Virus record (IMG/VR): IMGVR_UViG_3300035698_012088
Coordinates: 1-64,000 of that record
Direction: 5' to 3' (one strand)
Origin: a virus
DNA length: 64,000 nt
Made by a program: the position numbers and the translations under genes
In this document: positions 2,145-25,188 of the stretch, one piece after another
How positions within the stretch are numbered: the first letter of the stretch is position 1
Layout: each line of letters opens with the position of its first letter
The notes under the pieces: model-generated
What the model saw: the letters and a program-made list of their open reading frames with translations, nothing else
Database searches by the model: none
What the model was told of the DNA's origin: nothing

Positions 2145-2763
2145 ACATTTTCAAATAGACGATGAAGAAGAGGCTGATAAAGGTGAATATAAGTTTGGTG
2201 CCATCAGAAACGGAATGCAGGGAACATTGATCCCTTTAACTGGTGACAGAGGCGGGCCTGAAGGAGAACAGTCTGTATATGGTAGAATAGTAATAGGTAA
2301 AGTTTATTCAGGAGAAGACTGGGATGTAGTAGAAGATCTATTACCGGACTGCCTCTTAGAAGACGCAGATATAGAGCTATCTGAAGAAGGCACTGCAACT
2401 CTCATAGACTCCCTAGAGGACGCTAAGGCAGTCCAGGATAGGGAAGTACAGGAAAAGGCCCTTGAGCAGCAGCTACAAGCCTTAGAAGAGCAGAAGAAAA
2501 AAGAAGACTGTAGTAAAAAGATCAAGATTACTACAAAGTATGGCACCTATAAAGGTAAATGTGTAGATATTGTTAGAGACGGAGAGTACGTCATTTTAGT
2601 ATACAGCGAAGACGCAGCCATATTCACCCCTCCTGTATCTGATGAGAAAATCTCATTATGTTGTGAGGGACACACCTGTGAAGTATATTATAAGGGAGTA
2701 GAAGTATCACTCTCCAGCTTCAACATCTGTTTACAGATTATGGAACTAGTTAAGGACAAGTAA
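2053..2763 (+). CDS. Acidic hypothetical protein before the portal
   Basis: 236 residues as called from 2053. The first 30 residues are basic, overlap the preceding small frame and may not be translated; the true start is uncertain. The body is acidic with a Glu/Gln-rich helix (about 125-155), then a Lys-rich beta-like domain with several Cys near the C-terminus (CCEGHTCEVYY). The stop overlaps the portal start (TAATG), so it is co-transcribed and probably coupled with it. Family not recognised. Confidence 0.65.
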   Translation: MASSTRNLRGVFISREEVENPKGTRKHPKNRHFQIDDEEEADKGEYKFGAIRNGMQGTLIPLTGDRGGPEGEQSVYGRIVIGKVYSGEDWDVVEDLLPDCLLEDADIELSEEGTATLIDSLEDAKAVQDREVQEKALEQQLQALEEQKKKEDCSKKIKITTKYGTYKGKCVDIVRDGEYVILVYSEDAAIFTPPVSDEKISLCCEGHTCEVYYKGVEVSLSSFNICLQIMELVKDK

Positions 2764-4661
2764 TGGCATATAACGCTGCATTTACAAATACCCCAGGCAC
2801 TGGGCAGGTAACATCCCCTTTCAAGACATTAACTAGATCCTTATTCCCAAGGACTATGAAAGACATCCTCAGTTGGGGTGAGGAATTATGGTTACATCAT
2901 GGCATTTATTCACAGGCTATTAAGAAAGCTGTGAGATACTTTATGACTGAGTTGGAAATAGAGGGTGATGCAGATCTCTCCTATGATACTAGAAAGAACT
3001 ATAGAGATGTCATTCAAAACAACTATGACATCATGACAGAGCTGTCCACTATAGGAGATGATTATATTGCATTTGGTAATTCTTTTACTTCTCTTTATAT
3101 ACCTTTCATTAGAAATATAGTGTGTCCAGACTGTGGATTCAGATTCCCATTTGAGAAGGGAAGAGAGTTTGTGCAGTGGAAAGAGTTTAAGTTTGTTGGG
3201 ACCTGTCCTAATGCAACATGTAACTTCAAAGGGCAGTTCAAGAGAAAAGATTTGAGAAAACCTGAAGAAGAGTTAAAGCCTACTATTATTAGATGGCCCC
3301 CTCAATACATGAGGATTAAACATCATCCTATCTCAGGTAAGTCAAAATACTACTTAGAAGTAACCAAGTATACAGAGCTTATAGAAGGACTAGAGTCTGG
3401 AGACTCAGTTTTTGTTAACGAGACTCCTTGGGAGATTATTGAAGCTCTCAGAGATGCTAAACACTTTGAATTTGCTGATGATGAGATCTATCACATGAGA
3501 AATCCTATTATTGCCTATACTAATCCAGAGATGAGAGGTTGGGGATTACCTAAGTTTATGTCTGAGTTTGAAACTGCAGTTCTTATTGTACTGTTAGATA
3601 AATACAATGAGTCAATTATAACAGACTATCTCATGCCATTTAGAGTTATTGCTCCACCACAAACAGGTTCAGGGGCAAATGGTAACTCTGCAGACCCCAT
3701 GCTTAATGTATCTTTAGGTAACTTTGTATCTAAAGCTAAGCAGATGCTTAATGCCCATAGAAAGAACCCTACTGGTTGGAACTTCTTCCCTTTCCCTCTA
3801 GAATATCAAATACTAGGTGGAGAGGCTAAAGACTTAACCCCAGTAGATTTAATGGAGCATTTTGAGAGCAGACTGTTGAACTCTATGGGCATCCCTCAAG
3901 AGTTTTATACAGGAACCGTAACTGACTCAGCAGGACCTATTATTGGTTTTAAGATGTTTGAGAGAACCTGGCAGCACTTTACCAAAGAGTTGGATAGATG
4001 GTTGGACTGGTTCATCAATAAGCAGGGTACACTAATGCAGTGGGAGAAGGTTACAGCTACTTTAGTTCCTGTATCCATCTATGAAGATCCAGAGATTAGA
4101 CAGTTAAAGTTAGACTTAGCTGCTTCTAAACAGATATCTAGAACTACGGCCTTTAGAAGTCTTGGTATTGATGTTGAATATGAAGACAAGAGAATTGAAG
4201 AAGAAGAGGATGAGTATAACAAGAGAATGGAAGAGAAGCAAATAAAAGACGCTGAGAAACAGAATGTTCTCGGTGCTACCTATGCTCCATCAGCAGCTGA
4301 AGAAATGCTTCAACAGCAAGAACAAGCTGCAGCAGCCCAACAAGGTGGAGCAGCCCCAGCACCAGCACCAGGAGGAGCAGGAGCAGGAGCAGGACCTCCC
4401 TCTTTGGGTGGGTCAGTGGACCAAGGAGCAGGATCAGGTGGCAGCTTAGATGAGATAATGAATCAAGCTGATCAAATAGCCCAGCAACTATTGACTATGG
4501 AGCCTTCTCAGAGGAAGAGTGAATTGATCAACCTTAAGAAGACCAATGAAGCTCTCCATGCACAGGTTAAGGCTAGATTAGAGACATTAGAACAACAAGC
4601 AGCCCAAACAGGAGTCCAGTTAACAAGAGCTGGAGAATTACCCCCTCCAGGACAAGGATAA
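2763..4661 (+). CDS. Portal protein with a zinc-ribbon insertion
   Basis: A 632-residue protein with portal-like layout. Portals form the dodecameric ring at the head vertex through which DNA passes and to which the terminase docks. The recognisable core lies at about residues 360-420 (LLNSMGIPQEFYTG...GFKMFERTW), the usual portal pattern of a conserved Gly-Ile-Pro before the long crown helices. Around residues 120-160 an inserted segment has CPDCG and CPNATC, a four-Cys zinc ribbon not typical of portals. The C-terminus (about 500-632) is Gln/Ala/Gly/Pro-rich and low in complexity. The start overlaps the preceding stop. Identified by motif and synteny only. Confidence 0.75.
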   Translation: MAYNAAFTNTPGTGQVTSPFKTLTRSLFPRTMKDILSWGEELWLHHGIYSQAIKKAVRYFMTELEIEGDADLSYDTRKNYRDVIQNNYDIMTELSTIGDDYIAFGNSFTSLYIPFIRNIVCPDCGFRFPFEKGREFVQWKEFKFVGTCPNATCNFKGQFKRKDLRKPEEELKPTIIRWPPQYMRIKHHPISGKSKYYLEVTKYTELIEGLESGDSVFVNETPWEIIEALRDAKHFEFADDEIYHMRNPIIAYTNPEMRGWGLPKFMSEFETAVLIVLLDKYNESIITDYLMPFRVIAPPQTGSGANGNSADPMLNVSLGNFVSKAKQMLNAHRKNPTGWNFFPFPLEYQILGGEAKDLTPVDLMEHFESRLLNSMGIPQEFYTGTVTDSAGPIIGFKMFERTWQHFTKELDRWLDWFINKQGTLMQWEKVTATLVPVSIYEDPEIRQLKLDLAASKQISRTTAFRSLGIDVEYEDKRIEEEEDEYNKRMEEKQIKDAEKQNVLGATYAPSAAEEMLQQQEQAAAAQQGGAAPAPAPGGAGAGAGPPSLGGSVDQGAGSGGSLDEIMNQADQIAQQLLTMEPSQRKSELINLKKTNEALHAQVKARLETLEQQAAQTGVQLTRAGELPPPGQG

Positions 4662-7561: not shown

Positions 7562-10500
7562 ATGTCCCTATTAATGGAAGTCCTAAAAGAGGCAGGGATG
7601 CCAATTAAAGGATCTATACTCTCAGAGGTTTTAACTGCTCCTCAACCACCATCAGAAGAGATTGGTGTGTCTGAAGATCAGCTTTTGGACTTTGATGACT
7701 ATACTTCAGCTAGACTACAGCTCTTTGATAAGACTCAAATTGCTGTTCAAGAAGCATTCCCCTTAGAGAATGATCAGTATAGCTTATCTGTACAGGATGT
7801 AAAATATAGAGATCCTGACAAATACACCTTATCTGATGAGAAGAAGGCTGTTTCAGAGGGACAGACTTTAGGTAGAAGATTAGTAGGTAGATATGTCGTT
7901 ACAGATAAAGTTACGGGCAAAGTAGCTAATACCTCTGGACTCAGAACTCTTATCAATGTACCCTATTTTACACAGAGAGGGACTTTTATTAGAAATGGGA
8001 CTGAGTATGCTATTCCTAAGCAGCTTAGACTTATTCCTAATGTGTATACAAGACACACTGCTGATGGTAAAGTAGAATCCCAATTTAATGTAGCTCCTAG
8101 AACAGGACCCTCCTTTAGAATACAGATGGATCCTGCTACTTCTCTTTTCTATATGAAAGTATCTAATAGAAAGATTCCGCTATATCCTGTGTTAAGGAAG
8201 ATGGGTGTTTCAGATGAAGACCTTAAGAACACTTGGGGAGGGGGAGTCTTCAAAGTAAACCAGGCCCAGAGAGTATCCCCACATGCTATCAACTGGATGA
8301 GAGACTCCATTGAGAGAGGCGAAGCCATGTTGGAGAAGCAAGGAGAGGAGAATACAGAGCCTGATGAACAGGACAGTGCCAAATTAAGGGCTTACTTCAA
8401 TAATATGGGGTTAGACCCAGAGGCTACTACTTTAACTCTAGGAAAGCCTTATTCTAATGTTACACCGGAGACACTATTAGATTCTACTTCTAAGATCCTA
8501 AAGGTATCTAGAGGACAGGCAGAGACAGATGATAGAGATTCTTTAGCTTTCCAGACTGTACATGATGTTTCAGACTTCCTTCCAGAGAAGATACGACATG
8601 ACCAGAATAGAGTTATGAGAAATTACTTATGGAAGCTAACAGGTAAAGGAGGAGACCCTTCTGTTATTCCTTCTGCTGCCTTGGACAAACACTCAGCTCA
8701 TCTATTTAATACTGCTAAAATTGCACAAGCTATTGAGGAGATATCTCCTTTAGATATATACAATCAGAATCACAGAGTTGTGAGACTAGGAGAGGGAGCA
8801 CTACCCTCTATAGAATCTGCGCCAAGAGAGGCCAGAAATGTGCAACCAAGTTATCTTAACTTCATAGATCCAATCAGGTCACCTGAATCGCTTAGAATTG
8901 GACTGGATCTATTCTTCTCTAGACAGGTGAGAAAGGGCCCAAAGAATCTATTGTACTCTAAGTTTCTTGATCCTAAATCAGGAAAATTACAGTGGGTGAG
9001 TTCTAGGAAAGCAGCTAATGCTATTATAGGATTTCCCGATGCGTTAAAGACTAAAGACAGATATGTTCCAGCTATGTATAAATCTAAAGGTATCTACTAC
9101 GTTCCTAGGGAAAAGGTAGATATGTTTGTACATTCCGGGGATGACCTCTTAAGTGTTGGGGGTACAACAGTACCTTTAGCTTCTGGTATTAAGGGAATGA
9201 GATTCTTGATGGGATCTAAGTATCCCTCTCAATCTCTTCCTCTAGTAAATAGAGAAGCGCCCAATGTACAGAGTCTTGCTAAAAATGGACAGCCTCTATA
9301 CGAATACCTGAGTAAATTCATGGGAGTTAAGAGAGCAGAGGCAGCAGGTGTTGTGACTAAAGTGGGTAAAGAGTCTATGACCATAAAATATGACAACGGT
9401 GAGACTAAAAATGTAGATCTCTACAATACTTTCCCGTTTAGTAGAAAGACCTTCATGCATAATTATCCTACTGTAAAGCTAGGAGATAGGGTTGAGAAGG
9501 ATGGACTATTAGCTACAAGTAACTTCTCCACAGATACCGGAACTGGAGCCCCAGGCAGAAACCTTAGGGTTGCCTACATGGGATATAGAGGTAAGAACTT
9601 TGAAGACGCTACTGTAATCTCAGAAGAAGCCGCTAAGAAGTTAACCTCAGAGCAGATGTATGTAGAGAAAAAGGAAGAGCAAGAGGGACTTAGGTTTAGT
9701 AAGAATACTTTTAGAAATCTATTCCCAACTAAGTTTAAAAAAGACCAATTAGAGAACATTGGGGATAATGGAATAGTAAAACCGGGAACTGTATTAAACT
9801 ACGGTGATCCTATGATCTTAGCCTCCAAAGAGAGAATACCATCCTTGTCTACTCTAGGCAGAAGGGTAAGTACAGATGAATCAAAGGTATGGGAACATTA
9901 TTCTCCAGGAGTTGTGACCAGTGTATCTAAGACTAAGAAGGGCCATTCTGTCTTTGTTAGAAGTAACTCTCCTATGCAAGTTGGAGATAAACTAGCCTTA
10001 CCTTGGGGAGCCAAAGGGATTATCTCAGAGATAGTAAAACAAGAAGATATGCCCAGGGATGCTCAAGGAAAAGCCTTAGAGGTTCTATTAAGTCCTCTAG
10101 GCATTATCTCTAGAACAAATAGTGCTCAATTGGTTGCTGCAGCATTAGGTAAAGTAGCTGCTAAAACAGGTAAGCCTTATGTCCTCCCAGGATTCATGAA
10201 TGAGAACATGGTTGACTTTGCTATGAAAGAATTAGCAGACAATGGTTTAACTGATACAGAAGAATTATATGACCCTTTACTAAAGAAGAGTATACCTAAG
10301 GTTTTTGTAGGTAACACTTATGTGTATAAGCTACAACAAATAGCAGAGTCTAAAGGTAAAGCTAGATCAACAGGATCTTACTCACAAGATGAAGACCCAA
10401 GTAGAGGTGGAAAGTCAGGCTCTAAGCATGTAGGATCTCTGGATCTACAGGCACTACTATCTCATGGAGCTACAGAGGTTATCAAAGACCTTAAGCTCAT

Positions 10501-13500
10501 CAAGGGACAAAAGAATGATGACTTCTGGAGACAGGTTAAATTAGGGAAGACTCCAGTCTCTCCCAAGTCTACCTTTGTATATGACAAGTTTAAAGCACTA
10601 CTTAGGTCTGGAGGAATTAACCTACAAGAGACCTCAACAGCAGATTCTATATATGGTATGACTAATACCCAGATGGTTAAACTTAGTGGGAATAGACAGA
10701 TTAAGACAGGTCAAACTTTCTCAGCTAAGCATCTTAAACCTATCCCAGGTGGTTTATTTGATCCACAGGCAACAGGTTCCTTAGCTGGAGGAGATAGATT
10801 TTCTTATATCCAATTACCCGATCCTTTGCCTAACCCTATGATGGAGAATGCTTTAAGGGTTATCTTAAGTAAGACTCAGAAAGAGTTTGATGAAGTCCTA
10901 GAAGGTGGTTTATCAGTGGACGGTAAAACTGGTGGACAAGCTATGAAGGCCCTATTAGACAAGGTATCCTTACCTCAACTAAAAGCTCAAGCAGAAAATG
11001 AAATCAGATTTGGGTCAGCATCTAGAAAAGACGCTGCTGTTAAGAGATTTGGATTTCTCACTGCTATGGAGAAACATGGGGTGAAGCCTTCTGACTTTAT
11101 GATGGATAGAGTTCTTGTGCTACCTCCTAAATATAGACCAGTAACTAGACAAGGTGGGCTAACCATGTCTAATGATATGAATTATATGTATAAGGCTTTA
11201 ACTGAAGCTATAGAAGACTATAATGATTCTGAAGGATTACCTGAACCAGTAAGAAAAGAAGCTAGGTCCAATTTGGTAAACATCCATAGAGCCACTATTG
11301 GAATGATAGACCCAGCTCATCCTAAACTAGTACAAAAGAACATAGGTGGGATTTTAAAACAACTATTTGGTAAAGGCTCCCCAAAAGCTTCCTTTGTACA
11401 AAGAAAGGTTATGGAAACCAATATGGATATATCAGGTTTAGCTGTAGTATCTCCTAATCCTAATCTAAAGTTAAATGAAGTAGGGCTCCCTATAGAAAAA
11501 GCTTGGGAGTTATATGAACCTTGGATTATAAGACATATGGTTAGAAACAATACTCCAGCTACAGCAGCTGCTAAAGCAGTCAAGAATAAAGACAGGTCTG
11601 CTCTAGCCGCACTTCAAGAGGTAGTGAAGCAAAGACCTGTGATAGTAAACAGGGCTCCAACACTACATAAATATAGTATGATGGCCTTTAAACCTAAACT
11701 AGTTAAAGGGGAAACGCTACAAGTATCTCCTGCTATTGTAGGACCTTTTACTATGGACTTTGATGGGGATTCAATAAGTGGTTGCGTTGCAGTGAGTTAT
11801 GACTTTTTTATAGATAATATAGAAAAAACAGTTGAAAAAAGCAAAGGGGATAGTATAGTAGTTAATACGAAAAAGGAGGCAAATATGCCAATTTCAAAAA
11901 CTGCTAAGCTGTCAACAAATGTGAGTATTATTCCTATAGAGAATATGCCTAGAATAGAAGCGTCTAAAATAGAGAAATCAGATAATGTTTCAGAATGGGA
12001 TGTTCCATTAGGGGTGAATGTATGTGCTTTAGATAGAGAAACTAGAGAACTCAAACATTATGCTGTGACTAAGTTTTCAGAACACAGAAACCTAAAGATG
12101 TTTGATGTAACCTTAGGTAAATGGTACTCCAAGGTAATAACTGTATCTGAGGACCACTCCCTGGTTGGATATGTAGATGGAGTTTTAGAACTACTTAAGC
12201 CAGAAGAGGCCCTACATAAAATGGTACCTGTGTCTAAAGCTCTACAGCACTATTCCTCTGAAGACACTATATATAACATGTCTAATGGAGAAGTAGATAT
12301 CTATTTAAATAAAGAGTCGGGTATTGTTTTAGGTGCTCTTATAGGAGATGGTTGGGTGGATGTAGGGAATACCTGCTATTTAACTTCTGCTTATCCTGAA
12401 TTCATAGACTACATAGAAGGATGTTTAATTCAAGGAGCTATTCCTTTACACAATAAAGATAAAGTACTCTCCTCCCACTATTATGATAGAAAAAATATTG
12501 AAGGTGTGGTAAAACCTGTTAATAAGACTACTTTTTCTTTAACAGCTAAAGCAAAAGAACTAATAGGTCAAAAAATAGGAAAAGGGTTTGATAAGAAAGT
12601 TATTCCACAAGAGTGTTTAAGAGCACAAAGATCTCATCTTATAGGTTTACTCATAGGCCTTATGTCTACAGATGGTTCTATTTTCTGTAAGAAGGGATTA
12701 AAGAGAAATAAAGAATTTTGGAACTGCGGAGCTAGTTATTGTACTCTTTCTACTAATTTAAGAGATTCTTTTGTACATCTTTGTAAACTATTGGGTATTA
12801 GAACCACAGTGTCTATGTTTATAACTAAACTTAAAGGTAATACCGGGTATACAATTACTCTATGTAAGCCTGACTTTGTTAAGTTCTGTAGAGAGAATGA
12901 AGCTTTCCATATGCCTATTGCACATAAACAAGACGCACTAGAGTTATTCTTAAGTAAGGTAGATATGGAATCAAACACAGCCCTAGCTGTAGATAAAGTG
13001 CCGTATCCTAAAAATCTGCACTCTGTGTTTTTACAGTTAAATAAACAAGGTACTCCTGTGCTAAGCCCTTCTGGACTAAGTAAAGTCAATAAAGATGGAT
13101 TTATTTCTAGAATAAAGGCTTTAGAGTTTTCTAAAAAGCATTTACAGGATCTACCAGAAGATACTGTACATAGTTTTAAAGAATGGAGAACTTTAGTAAA
13201 AGATACAGAGGTTAATTGGGAGAGAGTAGAGAATGTATCAAAAAGAGAAGGACTAGAGACAGCTTATGATATAACAGTTCCAGGCCCTTTTACCTTTGCT
13301 ACTTCTGATGGAATAATTGTCCAAGATACTGCCTCTTATTCAGTTCCAGTATCTAAAGCAGCTGTTAAAGAGGCAATGGAAAAGATGTTACCGGAGAAGA
13401 ACTTATTATCAGTAAGAAATGACCTGCCTCACTATGTTCCGAGCCAAGAGTACATTCAGGGGCTATATTACAGTACTAAAGAGCCTACTAACAAAAAACC

Positions 13501-13591
13501 AGTTATATTCTTAACCAGAGCAGATGCTATGGCTGCATATAAGTCCGGTGAGATTAGAGTTGATGACCCTATTATTATAAAGGGCGAATAG
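7562..13591 (+). CDS. RNA polymerase: beta fused to the N-terminal half of beta', with an intein
   Basis: 2009 residues, the largest gene in the window. Residues 1 to about 1020 match bacterial RpoB in order: a GTFIRNGTEYA stretch near residue 140, YRGKNFEDATVISEE near 680, GDKLALPWGAKG at 808-819 with active-site lysines K810 and K818 spaced as in E. coli K1065/K1073, and RSTGSYS near 935. From about 1040 it continues as RpoC: GLFDPQ, VLPPKYRP, NRAPTLHKY and the Mg-binding D-F-D-G-D at 1399-1403. The four-Cys zinc finger usual near the RpoC N-terminus is missing. An intein (1404-1922) interrupts the sequence right after DFDGD. The final 87 residues resume RpoC (ASYSVPVS, VPSQEYIQGLYY). Mature length without intein is 1490. 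Good ribosome site (AGAGGTAGG). The rest of beta' is at 14809. Confidence 0.93.
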   Translation: MSLLMEVLKEAGMPIKGSILSEVLTAPQPPSEEIGVSEDQLLDFDDYTSARLQLFDKTQIAVQEAFPLENDQYSLSVQDVKYRDPDKYTLSDEKKAVSEGQTLGRRLVGRYVVTDKVTGKVANTSGLRTLINVPYFTQRGTFIRNGTEYAIPKQLRLIPNVYTRHTADGKVESQFNVAPRTGPSFRIQMDPATSLFYMKVSNRKIPLYPVLRKMGVSDEDLKNTWGGGVFKVNQAQRVSPHAINWMRDSIERGEAMLEKQGEENTEPDEQDSAKLRAYFNNMGLDPEATTLTLGKPYSNVTPETLLDSTSKILKVSRGQAETDDRDSLAFQTVHDVSDFLPEKIRHDQNRVMRNYLWKLTGKGGDPSVIPSAALDKHSAHLFNTAKIAQAIEEISPLDIYNQNHRVVRLGEGALPSIESAPREARNVQPSYLNFIDPIRSPESLRIGLDLFFSRQVRKGPKNLLYSKFLDPKSGKLQWVSSRKAANAIIGFPDALKTKDRYVPAMYKSKGIYYVPREKVDMFVHSGDDLLSVGGTTVPLASGIKGMRFLMGSKYPSQSLPLVNREAPNVQSLAKNGQPLYEYLSKFMGVKRAEAAGVVTKVGKESMTIKYDNGETKNVDLYNTFPFSRKTFMHNYPTVKLGDRVEKDGLLATSNFSTDTGTGAPGRNLRVAYMGYRGKNFEDATVISEEAAKKLTSEQMYVEKKEEQEGLRFSKNTFRNLFPTKFKKDQLENIGDNGIVKPGTVLNYGDPMILASKERIPSLSTLGRRVSTDESKVWEHYSPGVVTSVSKTKKGHSVFVRSNSPMQVGDKLALPWGAKGIISEIVKQEDMPRDAQGKALEVLLSPLGIISRTNSAQLVAAALGKVAAKTGKPYVLPGFMNENMVDFAMKELADNGLTDTEELYDPLLKKSIPKVFVGNTYVYKLQQIAESKGKARSTGSYSQDEDPSRGGKSGSKHVGSLDLQALLSHGATEVIKDLKLIKGQKNDDFWRQVKLGKTPVSPKSTFVYDKFKALLRSGGINLQETSTADSIYGMTNTQMVKLSGNRQIKTGQTFSAKHLKPIPGGLFDPQATGSLAGGDRFSYIQLPDPLPNPMMENALRVILSKTQKEFDEVLEGGLSVDGKTGGQAMKALLDKVSLPQLKAQAENEIRFGSASRKDAAVKRFGFLTAMEKHGVKPSDFMMDRVLVLPPKYRPVTRQGGLTMSNDMNYMYKALTEAIEDYNDSEGLPEPVRKEARSNLVNIHRATIGMIDPAHPKLVQKNIGGILKQLFGKGSPKASFVQRKVMETNMDISGLAVVSPNPNLKLNEVGLPIEKAWELYEPWIIRHMVRNNTPATAAAKAVKNKDRSALAALQEVVKQRPVIVNRAPTLHKYSMMAFKPKLVKGETLQVSPAIVGPFTMDFDGDSISGCVAVSYDFFIDNIEKTVEKSKGDSIVVNTKKEANMPISKTAKLSTNVSIIPIENMPRIEASKIEKSDNVSEWDVPLGVNVCALDRETRELKHYAVTKFSEHRNLKMFDVTLGKWYSKVITVSEDHSLVGYVDGVLELLKPEEALHKMVPVSKALQHYSSEDTIYNMSNGEVDIYLNKESGIVLGALIGDGWVDVGNTCYLTSAYPEFIDYIEGCLIQGAIPLHNKDKVLSSHYYDRKNIEGVVKPVNKTTFSLTAKAKELIGQKIGKGFDKKVIPQECLRAQRSHLIGLLIGLMSTDGSIFCKKGLKRNKEFWNCGASYCTLSTNLRDSFVHLCKLLGIRTTVSMFITKLKGNTGYTITLCKPDFVKFCRENEAFHMPIAHKQDALELFLSKVDMESNTALAVDKVPYPKNLHSVFLQLNKQGTPVLSPSGLSKVNKDGFISRIKALEFSKKHLQDLPEDTVHSFKEWRTLVKDTEVNWERVENVSKREGLETAYDITVPGPFTFATSDGIIVQDTASYSVPVSKAAVKEAMEKMLPEKNLLSVRNDLPHYVPSQEYIQGLYYSTKEPTNKKPVIFLTRADAMAAYKSGEIRVDDPIIIKGE
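11771..13327 (+). other. Intein 1, in the beta' catalytic loop
   Basis: Residues 1404-1922 (519 aa) of the preceding gene have no RpoC counterpart, and removing them joins DFDGD to TASYSVPVS as in RpoC. The intein begins with Ser (SISGCVAVS) and ends GIIVQD before Thr. LAGLIDADG endonuclease motifs are visible (VLGALIGDGW and LLIGLMSTDGSI), so it may home. A C-terminal Asp with Gln before it is unusual, since most inteins end His-Asn. Splicing would be essential for polymerase activity. Boundaries are inferred by comparison with the RpoC consensus. Confidence 0.9.
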
Positions 13592-13613
13592 ATTAAACTA
13601 TTAGGAGTAGAAT

Positions 13614-14279
13614 ATGTTAGATAAAGAGAGTTTACTAAGTAGTATCAGAAGTGCCATGGAGAAAGAGGCATATGCTCCTCCAGCTCCTATGCCTATGGAC
13701 CCAGCAATGGGAGCAGCTCCCCCAATGGATCCTGCAATGATGGGAGCACCCCCTATGGATCCTGCAATGATGGGAGCACCCCCTATGGATCCTATGGCAG
13801 GAGGAATGCCTCCAATGGACCCAATGGCTGGTGGAATGCCTCCAATGGACCCAATGATGGATCCAGCTATGGGTGGAATGCCTCCTATGGACCCTGCTGC
13901 AGTAATGGATCCAGCTATGGGTGGAATGCCCCCAGTTGATCCCGCAGTTGCAGACCCTCTAACTCCTGGTTCAGAAGCTGAAGCAGCCTCTACAGAGGCC
14001 ATTGAAAAGCTTATTGATACAGTGGAAAAGTTGGATAAAAAGGTTGGCTCATTAGAAGAAGGTGTTGTTCAGGCTTTAGATGCTCAAGGTATTATGCCCC
14101 CAGAACAAGCTCTAAATGATCCTCAAGAAGTACCTGAAGAAGAAGTTACTCCTGAGGAAGTTGGCTTTTCCGATGAAGTTCAGAAGTTAGCATCAAACCA
14201 AGCCCTTTGGGAAAAAGATCTAGCCTCTAGGAGAGAACCTCTACTTAATACCTTAAGAGATATTAGAAAGATGCTCTAA
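13614..14279 (+). CDS. Pro/Met-rich repeat protein between polymerase genes
   Basis: 221 residues; AGGAG ribosome site. The N-terminus (LLSSIRSAMEKEAYAPP) carries the KEA motif. Residues about 22-115 are repeats of P-P-M-D-P and M-G-A/G-x units, followed by a helical coiled-coil segment (EKLIDTVEKLDKKVGSLEE) and an acidic helical tail containing VQKLAS. It separates the two polymerase genes and resembles the acidic Gly/Met-rich protein at 25196 in composition, so a scaffold-like or linker role is plausible. No known family. It is not a missing RpoC piece: nothing in it matches the beta' consensus. Confidence 0.7.
   Translation: MLDKESLLSSIRSAMEKEAYAPPAPMPMDPAMGAAPPMDPAMMGAPPMDPAMMGAPPMDPMAGGMPPMDPMAGGMPPMDPMMDPAMGGMPPMDPAAVMDPAMGGMPPVDPAVADPLTPGSEAEAASTEAIEKLIDTVEKLDKKVGSLEEGVVQALDAQGIMPPEQALNDPQEVPEEEVTPEEVGFSDEVQKLASNQALWEKDLASRREPLLNTLRDIRKML
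13677..13960 (+). repeat. Tandem Pro-Met-Asp-Pro coding repeats
   Basis: In-gene tandem repeats encode PPMDPAMMGA- and PPMDPMAGGM-type units. A 30-base unit is present in two identical consecutive copies around 13728-13790, and a related unit is repeated just after. Such exact copies suggest recent slippage or recombination and a length-variable linker. Confidence 0.8.
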
Positions 14280-14289
14280 GGAGGGTATA

Positions 14290-14805
14290 ATGCCAGTAGA
14301 TTTTAATCAATTAAAAGATAGAGCCGGATCCTTCTTAGGAGATGTTGGAGAAAAGATTAAGAAGAATCCTGAATATGTCACCACTCCTGGTGGAGCAGCT
14401 ATTGCTCATTTACTAGGTGCTGGAGCAGGTGGAGTGGCTTTAGGGGCTGCAGGTGGATATGGAGCAGGTAAAGTACTTGGCTCTGCCATCAACCAAGAAC
14501 CTATTGGCCCCGCCCCAGATAAAGTTTTGAGTGATATGGGGGGCCGAAGTGATCTCAACCCTCTTATAGACAGCACTATTGATACTGGTGCTGGAATTAT
14601 GGGGGACGCTGCCAAAGGCGTAGCTAATCAAACACTACAACATCCTATTATTGCTACAATCTTAGCCATCCTTCTTTTTAAGAGTAAAGGTGGCAGAGCA
14701 GTAGGAAGAGGTTTACGCGGAGCAGCAGGTGGAGCCATGGATCTCGGTAAGAACATTCTTAAAAGAAAACCTAACCTACATGTTGCGCCACCCAAAGTAC
14801 CATAA
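14290..14805 (+). CDS. Glycine-rich membrane-like protein
   Basis: 171 residues, ribosome site AAGGAGGG. A hydrophobic Ala/Gly helix lies at about 36-62 (HLLGAGAGGVALGAAGG), and a second (HPIIATILAILLF) at about 116-130 is followed by a basic Gly-rich tail. Similar in composition to the proteins at 4666 and 5178 but without their N-terminal tag. It lies between the two polymerase genes, four bases before the second one. Candidate internal virion or membrane-pore protein. Family not recognised. Confidence 0.65.
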   Translation: MPVDFNQLKDRAGSFLGDVGEKIKKNPEYVTTPGGAAIAHLLGAGAGGVALGAAGGYGAGKVLGSAINQEPIGPAPDKVLSDMGGRSDLNPLIDSTIDTGAGIMGDAAKGVANQTLQHPIIATILAILLFKSKGGRAVGRGLRGAAGGAMDLGKNILKRKPNLHVAPPKVP

Positions 14806-14808
14806 TAC

Positions 14809-17736
14809 ATGCCAAAAGTTCAGACAATAGGTCAAGTCTTAATAAAGAATGCCTTACCTGAAAATCTAAAGGAGTTTGAAGGCACCTTAGATAAGAAGGG
14901 TACCCAAAGGTTACTAGAGAGACTTGCTAAAGAAAACCCAGAAGAATATGTGGATACCTTGAAGAAGTTATCTGACATAGCTGCTGTGGTGTCTACTGAA
15001 TATGGAGGGGCAGCTTCTGTTGATTTAGCTTCACTTAGAACTCCCCCTTCTGTGGAAAGATATAAAGAGACAGTGAATGCAAAGGTTAGGTCTATATCCC
15101 AAAGCTCTAGTATCCCCATGGAAAAGAAGAGTGAGATGATTGTAACCTATCTTAGAAAGGTTAACCAAGAAGCACAGAAAAGAGTTTTAAATGCAGGAGC
15201 TGAGGTAGACAATATCTTCATCAATGCTATTAACCATGGATTTAGAGGTTCCCCCACTCAGGCTAAACAGCTTCTCTTTGGAGATGTCCTTAATGCTGAC
15301 CATAGAGGTAGAGCAATTCCTATTCCTGGGCTTAGTAGCTATGCTGGAGGAGTATCTCCCTTAGAATACTGGGCAGGGGCCTATGGTTCTAGAAAGGGAT
15401 ATGCTGATGTACAGTTTGCCACAGCAGATACTGGATACTTCGGTAAACAGATGGCCCTTATGGGTAATAGAGCTAGGATTACAGGAGAAGACTGCGGAGC
15501 AGATGATGTAGGTTTAGTAAGAGATGGGGATGATCCTGAGATTATAGGCACTATCCTCTCTAGAGATGTAGGGCCCTTTAAGAAAGGACATGAGCTAGAG
15601 AAACAAGATCTATCTGTTCTTAGAGATAAGAATGTAGTAACAAGATCCTTAGTAACTTGTCAACAAGATGAAGGTATTTGTCAGAAGTGTGCGGGCAAAA
15701 GAGAGAATAATGAGTATCCTCCTATGGGAGCCTTTGTAGGAATTACTGCAGCCAGAACAGTATCAGAACCAATGACCCAGGAGCTAGGGTTATGTCTTTG
15801 CGCCGCAACGACTTATGTAACAATGGCAGACCACAGCACCAAGCTTTTAAAGGACATCAAGTTAGGTGATTATGTACTTGGAGCTGATAAAAAAGGAAAC
15901 ACTTTTCCAACAAAAGTGCTTAATATTTTCAATCAGGGAGAGAAGGAAGTTTCAGAGATTGTATTTAAAGGGGCTTCTAGAGAAGAGAGGTCTATGGTAG
16001 CTACTTTAGATCATAAAATATTATCTAGAACTAGAAGTAACAGTAAAACAAAACTAGATATAAACCCCTGCGGATACAAAAATTCTAGATTTGGGGCGGT
16101 ACTCCCCTCTAAGTTTAAGGATAGTGGATTTACAGATAATAGCTATGATTTACTATTGGGGCTACTATTAGGAGATGGGGGATACTCTAAAGGAACACAT
16201 CAGGTAGCTTTTTCCTGCGACGACTCTACTCTATTAGAAGATATCAAAGACTATATGGGCTCTCTAGGACTGTACCTAAAGAAAAACAGCATCTGTAAAT
16301 ATATGGTAAACAGTTTAGAAGGCAAGGATAAAAAAGGCTGGAATAAACCTAATCCTTGTAAACAGTATTTACAGAAAACGGGACACTGGGGACAGATGTC
16401 TTATGAGAAATACATCCACCCCGAAGTATTAAATTCTTGGTCTAATGTTTCAGTAGCTAGACTTTTAAGTGGGCTATTTATAACTGATGGCAGTATTGGT
16501 TTCTCTAAACAAAGTGACTACCCTACTATAGAGTTCTGCAGCACTTCTGAAAGATTAGTGGAACAGGTTAAGCACTTATTGGAAAAGAGATTCGGTATCT
16601 ACAGTGGAGTGGTCTATGAGCAGGATAACACTAGAGGGTATGGAAAAAGAAATTTATATAGAGTAATTATAAGCAGAAAAGAATCCGTGTCTAAATTTAA
16701 AAATAATATTCCATTATTCGGCAAAAAGAAGAAACTATTGGATACTTGGAATAATTCTAACCTACAGGACGAGGCATATGTTATAAAAAGGGTATCTATG
16801 GAGAGTTTAGGAAAAAGACATACCATGGATATAGAAGTAGAACATCAGGATCACTTATTTGTTCTATCTAATGGTCTAATTGTATCAAATTCAGCTAAAC
16901 ATACTGGGGGTAATATTGGGAAAGATATTAAAGAGATAGAGGGGTTTGCAGAGATTAACCAATTCCTCCAAGTTCCTGAAAGATTTATTGGAGCTGCTAT
17001 ACTTGCCCCAGCAGATGGTAAAGTAACTAAAAAAGAGAAGGCCCCTCAGGGAGGGCAATATCTATATATTGGACAAGACAAAGTATATATTCCTCTGAGT
17101 AGGAAGTTGGATGTAGAAGTTGGAGATATGGTTGAAGCTGGGGACGCTATGACAGATGGAACACCTAACCCAGCAGAGATTGCCAGACATAAGGGATTAG
17201 GAGAGGGAAGGAAATACTTTGTACATAGATTCAGGAAGATGTTAGAAGATAATGGTATTCCACAGATGGTTAGAAATATAGAACCACTAGCTAGGAACTT
17301 CTTTGATAGAGTTAAAATAACAGATCCAGATGGAGTGGGAGGGTATGAGATAGGGGAAAGAATACCTTATTCTATGCTACAGAGAGAATATACTCCTAGG
17401 GTAGACTCTGAGACTATGTCTTTAAATAGAAGTGTGAACAAGTATCTAGAGAAACCAGTATTGCATTACACAATAGGCACAAAGATTACTCCTAAGATGG
17501 TTAAGTCCTTAAAAGAGATTGGATATGATAAGATATTAGTTAATGCTGAAGCTCCTGGTTTTGTTCCTGATGTAGTAAGATTGGCTGACAATACTTCTAC
17601 TGATCCAGATTGGAAAACAAGGTTGGCCAGTTTTGGACTAAAGAGATCCTTATTAGATTCAGTAACTCATGGCTCAACAAGTAAGCATGATTCTGCCTCA
17701 TTTGTCCCTAGTTTAATGAATCCGAGTACCCTATAA
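14809..17736 (+). CDS. RNA polymerase beta' C-terminal half, with an intein
   Basis: 975 residues continuing RpoC where the fused gene at 7562 stops. The start (TIGQVLIKNALPENL) matches RpoC just after the catalytic region. Later come RGSPTQAKQL, the YGSRKGYAD block, and a four-Cys zinc site: C229 (GEDCG), C284, C291 and C294 (CQQDEGICQKC). These are followed by the bridge/trigger-loop region GITAARTVSEPMTQE. An intein occupies 329-694. The remaining RpoC C-terminus includes RHKGLGEGRKYFVHRFRKML. Extein length is about 609. The start has no clear ribosome site and follows the previous stop by three bases, so it may depend on coupling. Catalysis would need assembly with the beta-beta'N protein. 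Confidence 0.92.
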   Translation: MPKVQTIGQVLIKNALPENLKEFEGTLDKKGTQRLLERLAKENPEEYVDTLKKLSDIAAVVSTEYGGAASVDLASLRTPPSVERYKETVNAKVRSISQSSSIPMEKKSEMIVTYLRKVNQEAQKRVLNAGAEVDNIFINAINHGFRGSPTQAKQLLFGDVLNADHRGRAIPIPGLSSYAGGVSPLEYWAGAYGSRKGYADVQFATADTGYFGKQMALMGNRARITGEDCGADDVGLVRDGDDPEIIGTILSRDVGPFKKGHELEKQDLSVLRDKNVVTRSLVTCQQDEGICQKCAGKRENNEYPPMGAFVGITAARTVSEPMTQELGLCLCAATTYVTMADHSTKLLKDIKLGDYVLGADKKGNTFPTKVLNIFNQGEKEVSEIVFKGASREERSMVATLDHKILSRTRSNSKTKLDINPCGYKNSRFGAVLPSKFKDSGFTDNSYDLLLGLLLGDGGYSKGTHQVAFSCDDSTLLEDIKDYMGSLGLYLKKNSICKYMVNSLEGKDKKGWNKPNPCKQYLQKTGHWGQMSYEKYIHPEVLNSWSNVSVARLLSGLFITDGSIGFSKQSDYPTIEFCSTSERLVEQVKHLLEKRFGIYSGVVYEQDNTRGYGKRNLYRVIISRKESVSKFKNNIPLFGKKKKLLDTWNNSNLQDEAYVIKRVSMESLGKRHTMDIEVEHQDHLFVLSNGLIVSNSAKHTGGNIGKDIKEIEGFAEINQFLQVPERFIGAAILAPADGKVTKKEKAPQGGQYLYIGQDKVYIPLSRKLDVEVGDMVEAGDAMTDGTPNPAEIARHKGLGEGRKYFVHRFRKMLEDNGIPQMVRNIEPLARNFFDRVKITDPDGVGGYEIGERIPYSMLQREYTPRVDSETMSLNRSVNKYLEKPVLHYTIGTKITPKMVKSLKEIGYDKILVNAEAPGFVPDVVRLADNTSTDPDWKTRLASFGLKRSLLDSVTHGSTSKHDSASFVPSLMNPSTL
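15793..16890 (+). other. Intein 2, in the beta' trigger-loop region
   Basis: Residues 329-694 (366 aa). Begins with Cys (CLCAATTYVTMADHS), ends GLIVSN, and the following extein residue is Ser. Excision joins TQELGL to SAKHTGG, matching the RpoC EPGTQ...GG stretch. Endonuclease-type motifs LLLGLLLGDGG and LLSGLFITDGSI are present. The second Cys at 331 is an alternative first residue but gives a poorer extein match. The penultimate residue is Ser instead of His. Confidence 0.88.
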
Positions 17737-18465
17737 ATGCCAATAGATAAAAGACAAGATGATGATGGGCAGAGAAGGAAGAAAATGGCTCTTTGGGCTG
17801 TTGCTGGAATGGGGGCTGCAGCAGCTGGTGGCATTGGCTATATGATGTACAAGAACAAGGATAAGTTCCCTAAAGCCCAAGAAAACTTTAGTGCACCCTT
17901 TGGTATATCCTCAAAACAACAAAAATCTATTTTAGGTGGAAAAGATTTAAGTAAGAAGTTTAGTCCTGAGCAATGGGGATCCCTACAGGCTTGGAAAGGA
18001 CTCCACATCGCAGCATCTAAATTAAAATCTGGAGGTCATGATGTTCCTTTCCAGTCAGGCCTACACAGGAAGAAGGTTGCTTATAAAGACTTCTCCCCTA
18101 AGATATTAGAACAACTAGGATTTCAGAAGTCCATGATTGCTGTTCCAGAAAGGGGGCAAACTCAATGGACAACCTATAGACACCCCAAGACATTCCATCA
18201 CTTACACAAGCATAAGAAGGATTGGTATATGCATAGAGATAAATTCTTAGCACTTCAATTAGCTATGCAGAGGATTGTTGGAAGAGATATTGGAGCAGGA
18301 CTGGGGGCTGTAGGGTCAGGAATCCACCATCTTGCTACAGAAGGTATTCCTGGTGGAACGAGGTATATTAAGAATAAGTTGTCCGGTGCTCCCAATTTTG
18401 AGGATATAAGCAATGACCTTAAAGGGGACTATCCTTTGATCTTGAAGATAAAGAACCTATTATGA
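17737..18465 (+). CDS. Hypothetical protein with N-terminal membrane helix
   Basis: 242 residues, starting right after the polymerase stop without a visible ribosome site, so probably coupled. A basic N-terminus (KRQDDDGQRRKK) is followed by one hydrophobic Ala/Gly helix (about 17-38), then a soluble His/Lys-rich domain (HHLHKHKKDWYMHRDKF at about 150-167). The topology resembles a single-pass inner-membrane or ejected internal protein. Its stop overlaps the next start (ATGA). Family not recognised. Confidence 0.65.
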   Translation: MPIDKRQDDDGQRRKKMALWAVAGMGAAAAGGIGYMMYKNKDKFPKAQENFSAPFGISSKQQKSILGGKDLSKKFSPEQWGSLQAWKGLHIAASKLKSGGHDVPFQSGLHRKKVAYKDFSPKILEQLGFQKSMIAVPERGQTQWTTYRHPKTFHHLHKHKKDWYMHRDKFLALQLAMQRIVGRDIGAGLGAVGSGIHHLATEGIPGGTRYIKNKLSGAPNFEDISNDLKGDYPLILKIKNLL

Positions 18466-18971: not shown

Positions 18972-21128
18972 ATGCCTGAGAATTCCTTTGAACAAAAATT
19001 TGGGCAGCTTGTGGACAACCAGTTGAAGGAAAAAGTTCCTGGGCTGTTAGAATATCGTGTAGGCTTTCAAGTAATAGACAAGAATGAAGAAGAAACAAGA
19101 GCAGTAGGAGTCTCTGCTTTTATCGTTAATAATGTATGGGCATATATTCCTGTATTCTTCCTAGAGGGAGAGTTAAAAGGAATGGATCTCTTTTACCTTA
19201 AACAGAGCGATATCTTTGTTCCTTCTAGAGACAACTGGATTACTACCTTCAAAGAAAAGGGTTCCCAGACTTTAGGTAAATCTGTAGATATTGGTGAAGA
19301 CGATGAAGACGGAGAAAATATGGAGCAAGCATATGCTCCTGAATCTGTCTCTATTGAAGAAGGTCCCGATTCAAACATAGAGAAAGAATCTATGTCTGAT
19401 AGATTTGGGGCTAATGCTATAATCTCTATAGAAGATATGCAGAAGATGGCAGCAAGAGCTATGCAAGATGTAGACTTTGACTTTGCCTCTCAATTGACCA
19501 AATTGGGAGCAGATGCTCAGATTACTTTTGCGAACACTCTTATGCACAATGCAGAATTTGCCAATGCTGCCTTTTCAGTACATGATCCTTCAGAGTTACA
19601 AAAAATTGCTTCTGTAGTTAAAGAAGCTGCCATGTTACAAGAAGATGATGATATGGACGAGGTCTCAGTAACCTTTATTAGTAAGGTTGATTCAGCTGCG
19701 GCAAAGAGCCTAAAAGACTCAGAAAAGAAAGCTCTAGTCCAACAGGGAGTTTTTGTTAAGGATGAGAGGACTAACTTCTCAAAGGTCTTCCATACTCAAG
19801 TAGACTCAGATGTTGTAGAAAACCCCACTACTAGTGGAATCTATGATGTGTTTATGAGAGACGGGTCCTTTAGAACAATGCTAGTTCTTTTCATTGATAG
19901 TGGAGATGGTTCCTTCTGTTCCTATAAAAACAACACACCTGCCAAGAAGGTGGGCCTTGTTGATCTAAAGACACCCACCAAGTATTACAAGAGAGACAGT
20001 AACTCTGTATTCACTAGACCTCCAAGAGATCTAAAATCAGAAGTTGGTAAAAGTGTCAAAGCTGGAGTTAAAGCATCCAGAAGAGGAATTAGAGATAAGA
20101 AAGAATGGGATAGAGTTCTTTTATCTCAGGAAATGAAGTATTGTGTAGAAGCTAGAATAGATGACAAGTTTACTGATCCTGAAGGAAAGGTACAAGTTTA
20201 CTTAGCCAATGATAGTGTTTATACTCCCTATGATTCTCCTGCAATTATGGATGCCCCTACAAGTCTATATCTAGAGTTCACTGATGAAGAAGCAGGTAAA
20301 CTGTGTGTCTTCAGTGACAAGATTTATGTACCAAGTAATGCCAGAATGTTCTTCCCCTATGAGTGGAAAGAAGACAAGGACTTAGCTTTAGGTACTATAG
20401 AGACTGTATATAGAGTTATGTCTAAAGAAGCCTCTTTTGAACCAATGAGAATTTATGCTTCTGGGGGAACAGCTCAAATTGTTATTGGAGATTGTGATAC
20501 AGGCCTAGTAGAAAAAGAAGCTGCCCTAAAAACACTAGTCTTAGGTGCAGGTATCTATGCTGGCCAAGCACAACAACTTCTAAAGGAAGCTTCTAGAAAC
20601 AGCCACGGCGTTCTAGATATGTTCATTAAGTTAGCAGCTCCTTATGATGTAGATAAGTATCAAGGTTCACAGTTGAAGCCATTCCAAGGAGGTCCAGCAG
20701 CCAAAGAAGAAGACGCTGTATTGGAAGAAGAATCTACTACAGAAGGGAAGAAATTACTTCCTGCAGATGCTGTAGCTAAAGCAACTAAAGCCTCCAAGGC
20801 AGGAATCAAAGAAGTCTTTGACCTCTCTGTTTTACAAAGTCTAGTAGAAGTAGCTGATCTCTCCGAACTTAGAAAAGACTATATCTCTGATATGATTCAA
20901 GGTATGGATAAAGTTGGTAGAATGTTATTTCTATATTACTGGCACAATGATGAGTTCGAAGATAGATATGGAAAAGAGGACATGATACAGTTGGAAGAGA
21001 CATTGAAACAGGTATTTGTTAGTACTGGAGACTTAGTTCTATTCTTGAAAGAGAAGACAGCTTATAATCCAGATACAGCAGAGTCCCTCTTTGGTGATCT
21101 TTCAGAGGACGTCGCCGAGTCGGAATAA
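18972..21128 (+). CDS. Large virion-module protein rich in KEA motifs
   Basis: 718 residues, strong ribosome site (TAGGAGATTAAA). Mostly soluble and acidic, mixing helical and beta-like segments. It carries many hydrophobic-x-K-x-A motifs: MQKMAARAM, LQKIASVVKEAAML, MSKEASFEP, LVEKEAALKT, LLKEASRN and FIKLAAPYD. The C-terminal 80 residues are helical with a FLYYWH stretch. Not assigned to a family; the length and position between polymerase and capsid genes suggest a structural or internal head protein. The repeated motif could mark processing sites (inference). Confidence 0.7.
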   Translation: MPENSFEQKFGQLVDNQLKEKVPGLLEYRVGFQVIDKNEEETRAVGVSAFIVNNVWAYIPVFFLEGELKGMDLFYLKQSDIFVPSRDNWITTFKEKGSQTLGKSVDIGEDDEDGENMEQAYAPESVSIEEGPDSNIEKESMSDRFGANAIISIEDMQKMAARAMQDVDFDFASQLTKLGADAQITFANTLMHNAEFANAAFSVHDPSELQKIASVVKEAAMLQEDDDMDEVSVTFISKVDSAAAKSLKDSEKKALVQQGVFVKDERTNFSKVFHTQVDSDVVENPTTSGIYDVFMRDGSFRTMLVLFIDSGDGSFCSYKNNTPAKKVGLVDLKTPTKYYKRDSNSVFTRPPRDLKSEVGKSVKAGVKASRRGIRDKKEWDRVLLSQEMKYCVEARIDDKFTDPEGKVQVYLANDSVYTPYDSPAIMDAPTSLYLEFTDEEAGKLCVFSDKIYVPSNARMFFPYEWKEDKDLALGTIETVYRVMSKEASFEPMRIYASGGTAQIVIGDCDTGLVEKEAALKTLVLGAGIYAGQAQQLLKEASRNSHGVLDMFIKLAAPYDVDKYQGSQLKPFQGGPAAKEEDAVLEEESTTEGKKLLPADAVAKATKASKAGIKEVFDLSVLQSLVEVADLSELRKDYISDMIQGMDKVGRMLFLYYWHNDEFEDRYGKEDMIQLEETLKQVFVSTGDLVLFLKEKTAYNPDTAESLFGDLSEDVAESE

Positions 21129-23760: not shown

Positions 23761-25188
23761 ATGATATCCAAAAGAATAAGAGCAGGCTTCTGGAATAATG
23801 ATAGACCAGCTGCATCTCTGTTACATATCTATGCTAATAAAGGTTTTGATAAAGACCAACTGCAGAAGATAGCTTCAGCTATTAGTCTAACCTTTGAAGA
23901 TATTAAACCAGAGAAGGGTAGTTCATTTGTACACCTTATTACTACTGGTTCAGGAGAGTTCTACGGACCAAACAGTAATGCTGACTGGTTCAATGAATCT
24001 AACAGATCCTTTACTTTCTCTGAGGGGTTGTTCAAATCAGCTCAATTACAGGGAGGTTTGACTGGCTTCCATAAGACTTATAGAGAGTTTGGGGGAGTAT
24101 ATAGAAACCATAACAACAGTAAAAAAGGCTTTGATAAAGAAGGTGAGGTAGTCTGGGAAGGTTACAATGAACCTATGCATAGAGGGGAACTAGTAGTTAA
24201 ACTGAAGGATGACCTTTGGCATGATGACTTAGAGAAACTAGCCTCTGGTGAGCCAGTATTCTGGTCCCAAGGTTGTGGAGTACCTGAAGATATCTGTTCT
24301 ATCTGTGGCAATAGAGCCAAGACAAGGCAGAACTACTGTGAACATCTTAAGTATGCTAAGCTAGAAATGGATAAAGAGGGTCACCAGGTATTTGCCATCA
24401 ATGACAGACCCCACTTCCATGATATCTCTAGAGTTACAGTCCCTGCTGATAAGATTGCTTTTACTTTAGGAAAGATTGCTTCAGAAGGTGTAGATGAAAC
24501 TATCATGTTTGAGACAGATGATTCAGGGATGTACCTCCCCCTTAGTCTTATTAACAAGTTAGCATCTAGGAAAGAAGCTAGTAGAGCAGAGCTTATTTAT
24601 AAGTTAGCTAAGATAGAGAAAGAAGTAGACCTAAAACCTGAAGGGATGTTTAAAGACTTAGCAGAAGCCTTTGATCTTCCAGAAGGTACTGAGGATGAAA
24701 TTGTTGGAAAACTTAAGGATATTCCAGAAAATAAGCTGTTTTCTTCCCTTTCCAATAATAACAGCATGTTGACACCGAACAGTTTTATACGTATAGTAGT
24801 TAAAAGAGAACCTGAGGATTTCCCAGGTTTACCTAAAGAGTTAGAAAGTATCTTTTCAAACCTTAAGGATAATGGAGACCTAAACGAGTTAATGGAGGAT
24901 GGTAGTTATTCCTCTTGTGGTCGCGCAGATAGGAAGTCAGAAGAAAGTGTTAAAGGGTTGTCTGATAGCATCTCTCTTGATCCAGAGCCAGTAGAGCACA
25001 GAATCATAAAGATCTCTATAACTGGTGGAAAACAAAAAGAAATGGATAAAGAGTCTGCATCTTATGAACCTACTTCAGCAACTAGATACATAGCAAAAGA
25101 ATACGCTAAGTACCAGTTGTCGTTTTTAGCCAACAGTGGCAAAGAAGAAAATCTAAAGTATGCTGTGTTACAAAACAGAGTAGGCTAA
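23761..25188 (+). CDS. Candidate prohead protease with cysteine-rich insert
   Basis: 475 residues, AGGAG ribosome site. The N-terminal 250 residues resemble the capsid maturation protease fold (HK97/S78-like): a hydrophobic strand (VHLITTGSGEFYG), a conserved His in YRNHNNSKKG that would be the catalytic base, GELVVKL strands, and a Ser in VFWSQGCGV, placed like the S-x-G nucleophile of that family. Right after this comes CSICGNRAKTRQNYCEH, a Cys/His cluster typical of a zinc finger. The C-terminal half is acidic and carries several KEA-type motifs (INKLASRKEAS), possibly a removable scaffold portion. Its place just before scaffold and capsid genes is classic for this enzyme. Catalytic residues are inferred, not aligned. 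Confidence 0.65.
   Translation: MISKRIRAGFWNNDRPAASLLHIYANKGFDKDQLQKIASAISLTFEDIKPEKGSSFVHLITTGSGEFYGPNSNADWFNESNRSFTFSEGLFKSAQLQGGLTGFHKTYREFGGVYRNHNNSKKGFDKEGEVVWEGYNEPMHRGELVVKLKDDLWHDDLEKLASGEPVFWSQGCGVPEDICSICGNRAKTRQNYCEHLKYAKLEMDKEGHQVFAINDRPHFHDISRVTVPADKIAFTLGKIASEGVDETIMFETDDSGMYLPLSLINKLASRKEASRAELIYKLAKIEKEVDLKPEGMFKDLAEAFDLPEGTEDEIVGKLKDIPENKLFSSLSNNNSMLTPNSFIRIVVKREPEDFPGLPKELESIFSNLKDNGDLNELMEDGSYSSCGRADRKSEESVKGLSDSISLDPEPVEHRIIKISITGGKQKEMDKESASYEPTSATRYIAKEYAKYQLSFLANSGKEENLKYAVLQNRVG

What the first reader, a model, noticed from the sequence alone, without database searches (positions are those of the whole stretch)
7562..17736. RNA polymerase beta fused to the front of beta', with the rest of beta' as a second gene, inside the virion module
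The first gene reads through RpoB and then RpoC as far as a few dozen residues past DFDGD; the second continues RpoC from the next region. The break inside beta' after the catalytic loop and the fusion at its front make an unusual two-chain layout. The chains are separated by two structural-looking genes, and the set lies between portal and capsid genes. Known virion-packaged polymerases (phiKZ group) are also split, but not, to my knowledge, in this beta-beta'N plus beta'C form.
Basis: partly seen in the sequence, partly recalled or inferred. Interest (0 to 1): 0.8.

Follow-up and report, generated by a model that had tools for sequence, protein, structure and literature searches.

The report
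Two-chain fused phage virion RNA polymerase
This phage carries a bacterial-type RNA polymerase made of two proteins (all of beta joined to the front of beta', plus the rest of beta') that is probably packed inside the virus particle; the same arrangement occurs in the cultivated Salmonella phage Arash and dozens of uncultivated phages, and single-chain and three-chain relatives show how such polymerases get cut into pieces.

Summary
ORF 7562-13591 encodes complete beta followed directly by beta' up to 87 residues past DFDGD; ORF 14809-17736 encodes the rest of beta'. Each chain carries an intein in a catalytic element: one directly after DFDGD, one in the trigger loop. The claim of uniqueness is wrong. 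Salmonella phage Arash (gp206/gp216) and Vibrio phages D69/D148/D181 have the same layout. In Arash these proteins are the first and fifth most detected virion proteins by spectral counts, so packaging is well supported by homology. Across 119 non-redundant family loci I found 60 single-chain beta-beta' enzymes, 30 two-chain (window included) and 14 three-chain ones (15 incomplete); the portal gene lies upstream in about 90. In an ML tree rooted on bacterial RNAP the single-chain forms are a clade (100), two+three chains a clade (89), three chains nested inside (100). That implies one fusion, then two successive fissions. The cut lies between E. coli beta' residues 550 and 572, about 20 residues before the cyanobacterial rpoC1/rpoC2 boundary. 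No alpha and no second RNAP set were found; a sigma-like gene was. Best reading: a virion-packaged early RNAP, a new variant of a known kind.

The parts
7562..10651 (+). Chain 1, beta part (residues 1-1030, full-length RpoB equivalent)
   Evidence: Pfam PF00562 4e-46; PDB bacterial beta 1.9e-134; boundary set by alignment
10652..11770 (+). Chain 1, beta' N-terminal part up to DFDGD (residues 1031-1403), fused directly to beta
   Evidence: Pfam PF00623 3e-20; catalytic DFDGD at 1399-1403
11771..13327 (+). Intein 1 (residues 1404-1922, 519 aa), inserted directly after DFDGD, ends in Asp before Thr
   Evidence: PF14890; length-matched extein alignment; same site occupied in L118, L073, L072 and others
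13328..13588 (+). Chain 1, end of beta'N (residues 1923-2009), stops at E. coli beta' position 550
   Evidence: Pfam PF04983; mapping
13614..14279 (+). Pro/Met-rich ORF between the chains, function unknown
   Evidence: no Pfam or PHROG match; homologues in 6 two-chain loci
14290..14805 (+). Small Gly/Ala-rich ORF between the chains, function unknown
   Evidence: no Pfam or PHROG match
14809..15792 (+). Chain 2, beta' C-terminal part, first segment (residues 1-328) to the trigger loop
   Evidence: Pfam PF04998; profile match 4.7e-90 to bacterial beta'
15793..16890 (+). Intein 2 (residues 329-694, 366 aa) in the trigger loop, with LAGLIDADG endonuclease
   Evidence: PF14528 3.6e-17, PF05203, PF01079; edge uncertain by one residue
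16891..17733 (+). Chain 2, remainder of beta'C (residues 695-975)
2763..4661 (+). Portal protein homologue
   Evidence: 28% identity to Arash gp204, 5e-66; PHROG 2739
18972..21128 (+). Homologue of Arash virion protein gp218
   Evidence: weak, 4e-5, but same gene order; homologues in 21 two-chain loci
23761..25188 (+). Homologue of Arash virion protein gp222
   Evidence: 30% identity, 2e-31
27322..28272 (+). Major capsid protein homologue
   Evidence: 26% identity to Arash gp226, 1e-26; PHROG 2522 major head protein

Best explanation
The two genes encode one alpha-less, bacterial-type RNA polymerase of two polypeptides: beta-beta'N (1490 aa after splicing) and beta'C (609 aa after splicing). 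Each precursor must first excise an intein that sits inside the active site, one after the Mg-binding DFDGD and one in the trigger loop. The covalent beta-beta'N link probably does part of what the alpha dimer does in bacteria, holding beta and beta' together. The enzyme is packaged in the head during assembly and injected with the DNA to transcribe the first genes, perhaps with the phage's own sigma-like protein. The layout arose by one beta-beta' fusion in the ancestor of the family and a later gene fission of beta' after the catalytic barrel. Shown: layout, inteins, homology, conserved gene order, tree. Inferred from the Arash relatives: virion packaging. Inferred only: early transcription, role of the linker, use of the sigma.
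For: Same two-chain layout and split point in Arash and Vibrio D69. Arash gp206 is the most detected virion protein (3516 spectra) and gp216 has 1210, against 1333 for the major capsid; a sigma (gp10) is in the virion too. Window and Arash share gene order portal - chain 1 - chain 2 - gp218 - gp222 - capsid - gp234, and G000 has a gp10-like sigma homologue. The portal gene is upstream of the RNAP in about 90 family loci of all layouts. DFDGD, the two beta lysines and the trigger-loop His are kept. No alpha in 19 records while 13 of 14 control genomes rang. Single-chain clade 100, two+three-chain clade 89, three-chain nested 100 in the rooted tree.
Against: Packaging was measured in Arash, not in this phage, and at 26-30% identity. 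The Arash authors note that abundant infection proteins might be carried over with particles. No early promoter motif was found. A second, strongly diverged RNAP could have been missed. The tree has only two outgroup sequences, a long stem and moderate support (89) for the two+three group.
Confidence: 0.78

Rival explanations
1. It is a non-virion polymerase, made during infection to transcribe middle or late genes, and found in Arash particles only as carry-over.
For: The Arash authors mention carry-over as a possibility, and other enzymes such as ribonucleotide reductase were also detected. Only one RNAP set was found per genome, so it might serve all stages.
Against: gp206 exceeds every other protein in spectral counts. 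The gene sits next to the portal in the head module in about 90 loci, as expected for a late structural gene.
Confidence: 0.15
2. The two pieces are remnants of an ancient multi-piece RNAP that existed before the cellular beta and beta' were joined; the single-chain forms would be later fusions.
For: This origin has been proposed for phiKZ-type phage RNAPs (PMC7824862).
Against: beta' is continuous in the bacterial outgroup and in the whole single-chain clade, and the three-chain forms nest inside the two-chain group, so the cuts look derived. The family is clearly close to bacterial RNAP in sequence.
Confidence: 0.1
3. The genes are decaying or inactive copies.
For: DFDGD is preceded by TM instead of the usual NA, and both active-site motifs are interrupted.
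Against: Catalytic residues are kept, both inteins are in frame with splice-junction residues, and the layout is conserved in four isolates and 27 contigs.
Confidence: 0.03

Closest known systems
Salmonella phage Arash gp206/gp216 (OQ632216, PMC10585845); Vibrio phages D69, D148, D181
   Same: Identical two-chain layout and split point, portal just upstream, shared head-gene order; Arash chains are in virions
   Different: 26-30% identity; no inteins in Arash or D69; a set of unrelated genes lies between the chains in Arash; annotated only as beta, fusion not remarked
phiKZ/AR9-type virion RNAP (Chimalliviridae and Bacillus jumbo phages; PMC7598289, PMC7824862)
   Same: Bacterial-type RNAP without alpha, packaged in the head; beta' cut after the catalytic barrel
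   Different: phiKZ-type beta and beta' lie in five or more pieces, two RNAP sets, no sigma; here beta is whole and fused to beta'N, one set found, sigma-like gene present
mReC, multi-subunit RNAP-encoding Caudovirales (PMC7481178)
   Same: Uncultivated tailed phages from metagenomes with RNAP close enough to bacterial RNAP to align
   Different: Published criteria need beta and beta' matches of 800 aa or more with NADxDGD; the window has TMDFDGD and a 609-aa beta'C; the paper reports no fusion or split in the group. Overlap with the family is possible but was not tested
Cyanobacterial and plastid rpoC1/rpoC2
   Same: beta' cut into two genes after the catalytic barrel
   Different: Cut about 20 residues further on; beta not fused to beta'
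Single-chain crAss-like phi14:2 gp66, YonO and P23-45 RNAPs (PMC10770324)
   Same: beta- and beta'-type barrels in one chain; some are in virions
   Different: Those are far diverged; this family keeps near-complete bacterial beta and beta' recognisable by sequence

Membership tests
Arash-type two-chain RNAP group (as defined here) | Complete beta fused to beta'N, beta'C separate, cut at E. coli beta' 550/572 | tested here: met
Arash-type two-chain RNAP group (as defined here) | Common descent of the RNAP | tested here: met
   Window groups within the two-chain forms; two+three-chain clade support 89 in ML, 0.999 in FastTree
Arash-type two-chain RNAP group (as defined here) | RNAP downstream of portal in the head module | tested here: met
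Arash-type two-chain RNAP group (as defined here) | Both chains present in virions | not testable with these tools
   Known for Arash only (PMC10585845)
phiKZ-type virion RNAP | beta and beta' each cut into several polypeptides | tested here: not met
   beta is whole and fused to beta'N
phiKZ-type virion RNAP | Two RNAP sets per genome | tested here: inconclusive
   One set found in G000 and 22 others; strongly diverged sets could be missed
phiKZ-type virion RNAP | No alpha and no sigma | tested here: not met
   No alpha found, but a sigma-like gene is present
mReC (PMC7481178) | beta' match with NADxDGD and at least 800 aa | tested here: not met
   Window motif is TMDFDGD; chain 2 is 609 aa without intein
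mReC (PMC7481178) | Placement in the mReC clade of the RNAP tree | not tested
Cyanobacterial rpoC1/rpoC2 | beta' cut at the rpoC1/rpoC2 boundary | tested here: not met
   RpoC2 chains start matching at profile position 23, not 1
Intein | Hint/splicing domain, endonuclease motif, nucleophile at the junctions, insertion-free relatives | tested here: met
   splicing itself not tested; intein 1 ends in Asp instead of Asn

The most novel reading that the evidence does not exclude
A largely undescribed family of tailed phages carries an alpha-less virion RNAP that began as a single giant beta-beta' chain and was then cut twice in succession. That would be a directly visible case of phage RNAP fragmentation by secondary gene fission, with the active site repeatedly invaded by inteins, contrary to the view that split phage RNAPs are relics older than cells.
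Probability: 0.65. Interest if true: 0.7.

Novelty: new variant of a known kind. Interest (0 to 1): 0.52.

Why it matters
Whether the fragmented RNA polymerases of phages are ancient pieces or broken-up cellular enzymes is an open argument (PMC7598289, PMC7824862). This family has one-, two- and three-chain members in a resolved order, so the argument can be tested within one lineage. Arash is cultivated and intein-free in these genes, and offers a two-polypeptide alpha-less RNAP that could be purified and studied. The active-site inteins suggest that the enzyme made in the window phage stays inactive until splicing.

Tried and rejected
A single-sequence scan of IMG/VR found nothing; alignment-based scans worked. 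The unannotated record OR844998 (L093), which at first looked like a phage with separate beta and beta', is bacterial in sequence and was used only as outgroup. A T7-type RNAP search in G000 gave nothing, but no control genome rang either, so it shows nothing. The search for promoter motifs gave only a ribosome-binding motif, and sigma70-like sites in 144001-159412 were fewer than in shuffles (29 against 42), which coding constraint may explain. A shared N-terminal tag in head proteins was looked for and seen clearly in only three. Structure prediction was not used: the intein-free chain 1 would be a changed sequence and is too long, no complex mode exists, and sequence matches to solved RNAPs are already at 1e-83 to 1e-134. 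Paper searches for a described beta-beta'N fusion found none. An origin of the split at an intein site was considered and rejected for the window: the cut is about 90 residues from the DFDGD intein.

Full report
Observation. The window belongs to a 159,412-base virus record. ORF1, 7562-13591 (2009 aa), matches RpoB domain 6 and the RpoC catalytic domain. ORF2, 14809-17736 (975 aa), matches the RpoC C-terminal domain. Both contain inteins. Intein 1 is residues 1404-1922 of ORF1, directly after DFDGD; relatives L118 and L073 carry insertions ending in WD|T at the same site, which supports the unusual Asp end. Intein 2 is residues 329-694 of ORF2, inside the trigger loop; its left edge may be off by one residue, because the spliced loop is one residue longer than in L020. 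After removal the chains are 1490 and 609 aa.

Where the cut lies. Mapped on the Salmonella beta' sequence (used here as E. coli numbering), chain 1 ends at residue 550 and chain 2 resumes at 572. Profile searches of the PDB agree: chain 1 matches bacterial beta along its length and beta' up to about 550, and chain 2 matches from about 572. Cyanobacterial RpoC2 begins about 20 residues further on, so the cut is near, but not at, the cyanobacterial one. The review PMC7598289 states that the phiKZ-type cut coincides with the cyanobacterial one.

Known relatives. Searching 50,697 phage records with each chain gave Vibrio phages D69, D148, D181 and Salmonella phage Arash as the only records covering 80% or more of chain 1, and the same four hold chain 2 homologues downstream. 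Alignment shows that Arash gp206 and D69_0261 end, and gp216 and D69_0264 begin, at the same place as the window proteins. The Arash paper reports gp206 as the most detected virion protein (3516 spectra) and gp216 with 1210, against 1333 for the major capsid; a sigma factor (gp10) was also detected. Gene order is shared between window and Arash: portal, chain 1, chain 2, gp218, gp222, major capsid, gp234; terminase and gp10-like sigma homologues lie elsewhere in the record.

Family survey. Two alignment-based scans of IMG/VR found 120 and 253 relatives; the best 80 of each were fetched. Classifying open frames with profiles for beta, beta'N and beta'C gave, after removing duplicates, 60 loci with all three in one chain (about 2050-2200 aa, more with inteins), 30 with the two-chain layout (window, Arash and D69 included), 14 with three chains (extra cut near E. 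coli beta' 170), and 15 where part lay outside the fetched stretch. The portal gene is upstream of the RNAP in about 90 of these loci, within 600 bases in about half. No phage member with separate beta and complete beta' was seen, but the scans were not designed to find such forms.

Tree. An IQ-TREE maximum-likelihood tree (LG+F+G4, 72 sequences, 1966 columns, ultrafast bootstrap) rooted on two bacterial RNAPs gives: all phage sequences 100, one-chain forms 100 (43 tips), two+three-chain forms 89 (27 tips), three-chain forms 100 nested inside. FastTree on an earlier set agrees. Since beta' is continuous in bacteria and in the one-chain clade, the economical history is: beta-beta' fusion at the base, one fission at the base of the two-chain group, and a second fission in the three-chain group. 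Limits: only two outgroup sequences, a long stem, and no mReC or phiKZ RNAP in the tree.

Other components. No RNAP alpha was found in G000 or 18 relatives although the control rang. Only one RNAP set was found in G000 and in each of 22 relatives. A sigma-like protein is encoded at G000 67417-68136, and sigma region 2 is found in 10 of 19 records (in G000 itself not by that model). Active-site residues are kept, while the bacterial zinc ribbon of beta' is missing in the family.

Mechanism. The best reading is a virion RNAP that is packaged and injected to start transcription. For the window phage, packaging is inferred from Arash and from gene order, and the early role from the analogy with other virion RNAPs. 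The beta-beta'N tether may stand in for alpha in holding the large subunits together; this is a proposal. Because both inteins interrupt catalytic elements, the enzyme should be inactive before splicing; this is inferred from position.

Relation to the literature. Papers read or searched describe multi-piece phiKZ-type RNAPs, single-chain crAss and P23-45 RNAPs, and the mReC group, but I found no description of a beta-beta'N plus beta'C phage enzyme or of the one-two-three series. Only open-licence papers could be searched.

Verdict. Observation confirmed, packaging well supported by homology, uniqueness refuted. What appears new is the extent and order of the layouts across the family.

Noticed in passing
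window 35526-37715: Radical SAM/SPASM protein that is itself interrupted by an intein with a LAGLIDADG endonuclease, inside the structural region.
   Followed up: no
L011, L017, L025, L045, L051, L072, L075, L132, L158, L160, L162, L170, L177 (RNAP genes): The RNAP genes of this family carry insertions of intein size at many sites, several in active-site elements (E. coli beta near 605, 807, 1105; beta' after DFDGD; trigger loop); up to three in one gene.
   Followed up: partly
L054:13305-13321; L080:11557-12487: beta is broken in two further relatives: in L054 at the end of an intein-like insert (possible frameshift or split intein), in L080 by a 930-base gap; Vibrio phage D181 has a homing endonuclease gene in the same gene.
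   Followed up: no
window 4666-5178, 5965-6342, 18462-18926: Three small proteins of the head region share a similar N-terminus (AFFEGYGQMEKEA, AFMLGYIEKYGAA, AYIEGYLSKEA), perhaps a packaging or protease-processing signal.
   Followed up: partly
OR844998 (L093) and similar unverified wastewater records: Record filed as a Staphylococcus phage whose RNAP genes read as bacterial; likely contamination in the phage collection.
   Followed up: partly
G000 144001-159412 (L088): Fewer sigma70-like promoter matches than in shuffled sequence (29 against 42, sd 4.8), which would fit independence from host RNAP but may reflect coding constraint.
   Followed up: no
window 138-842: ORF with a CNLKCGYCH motif, reads like a radical SAM activating enzyme; from reading only.
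   Followed up: no
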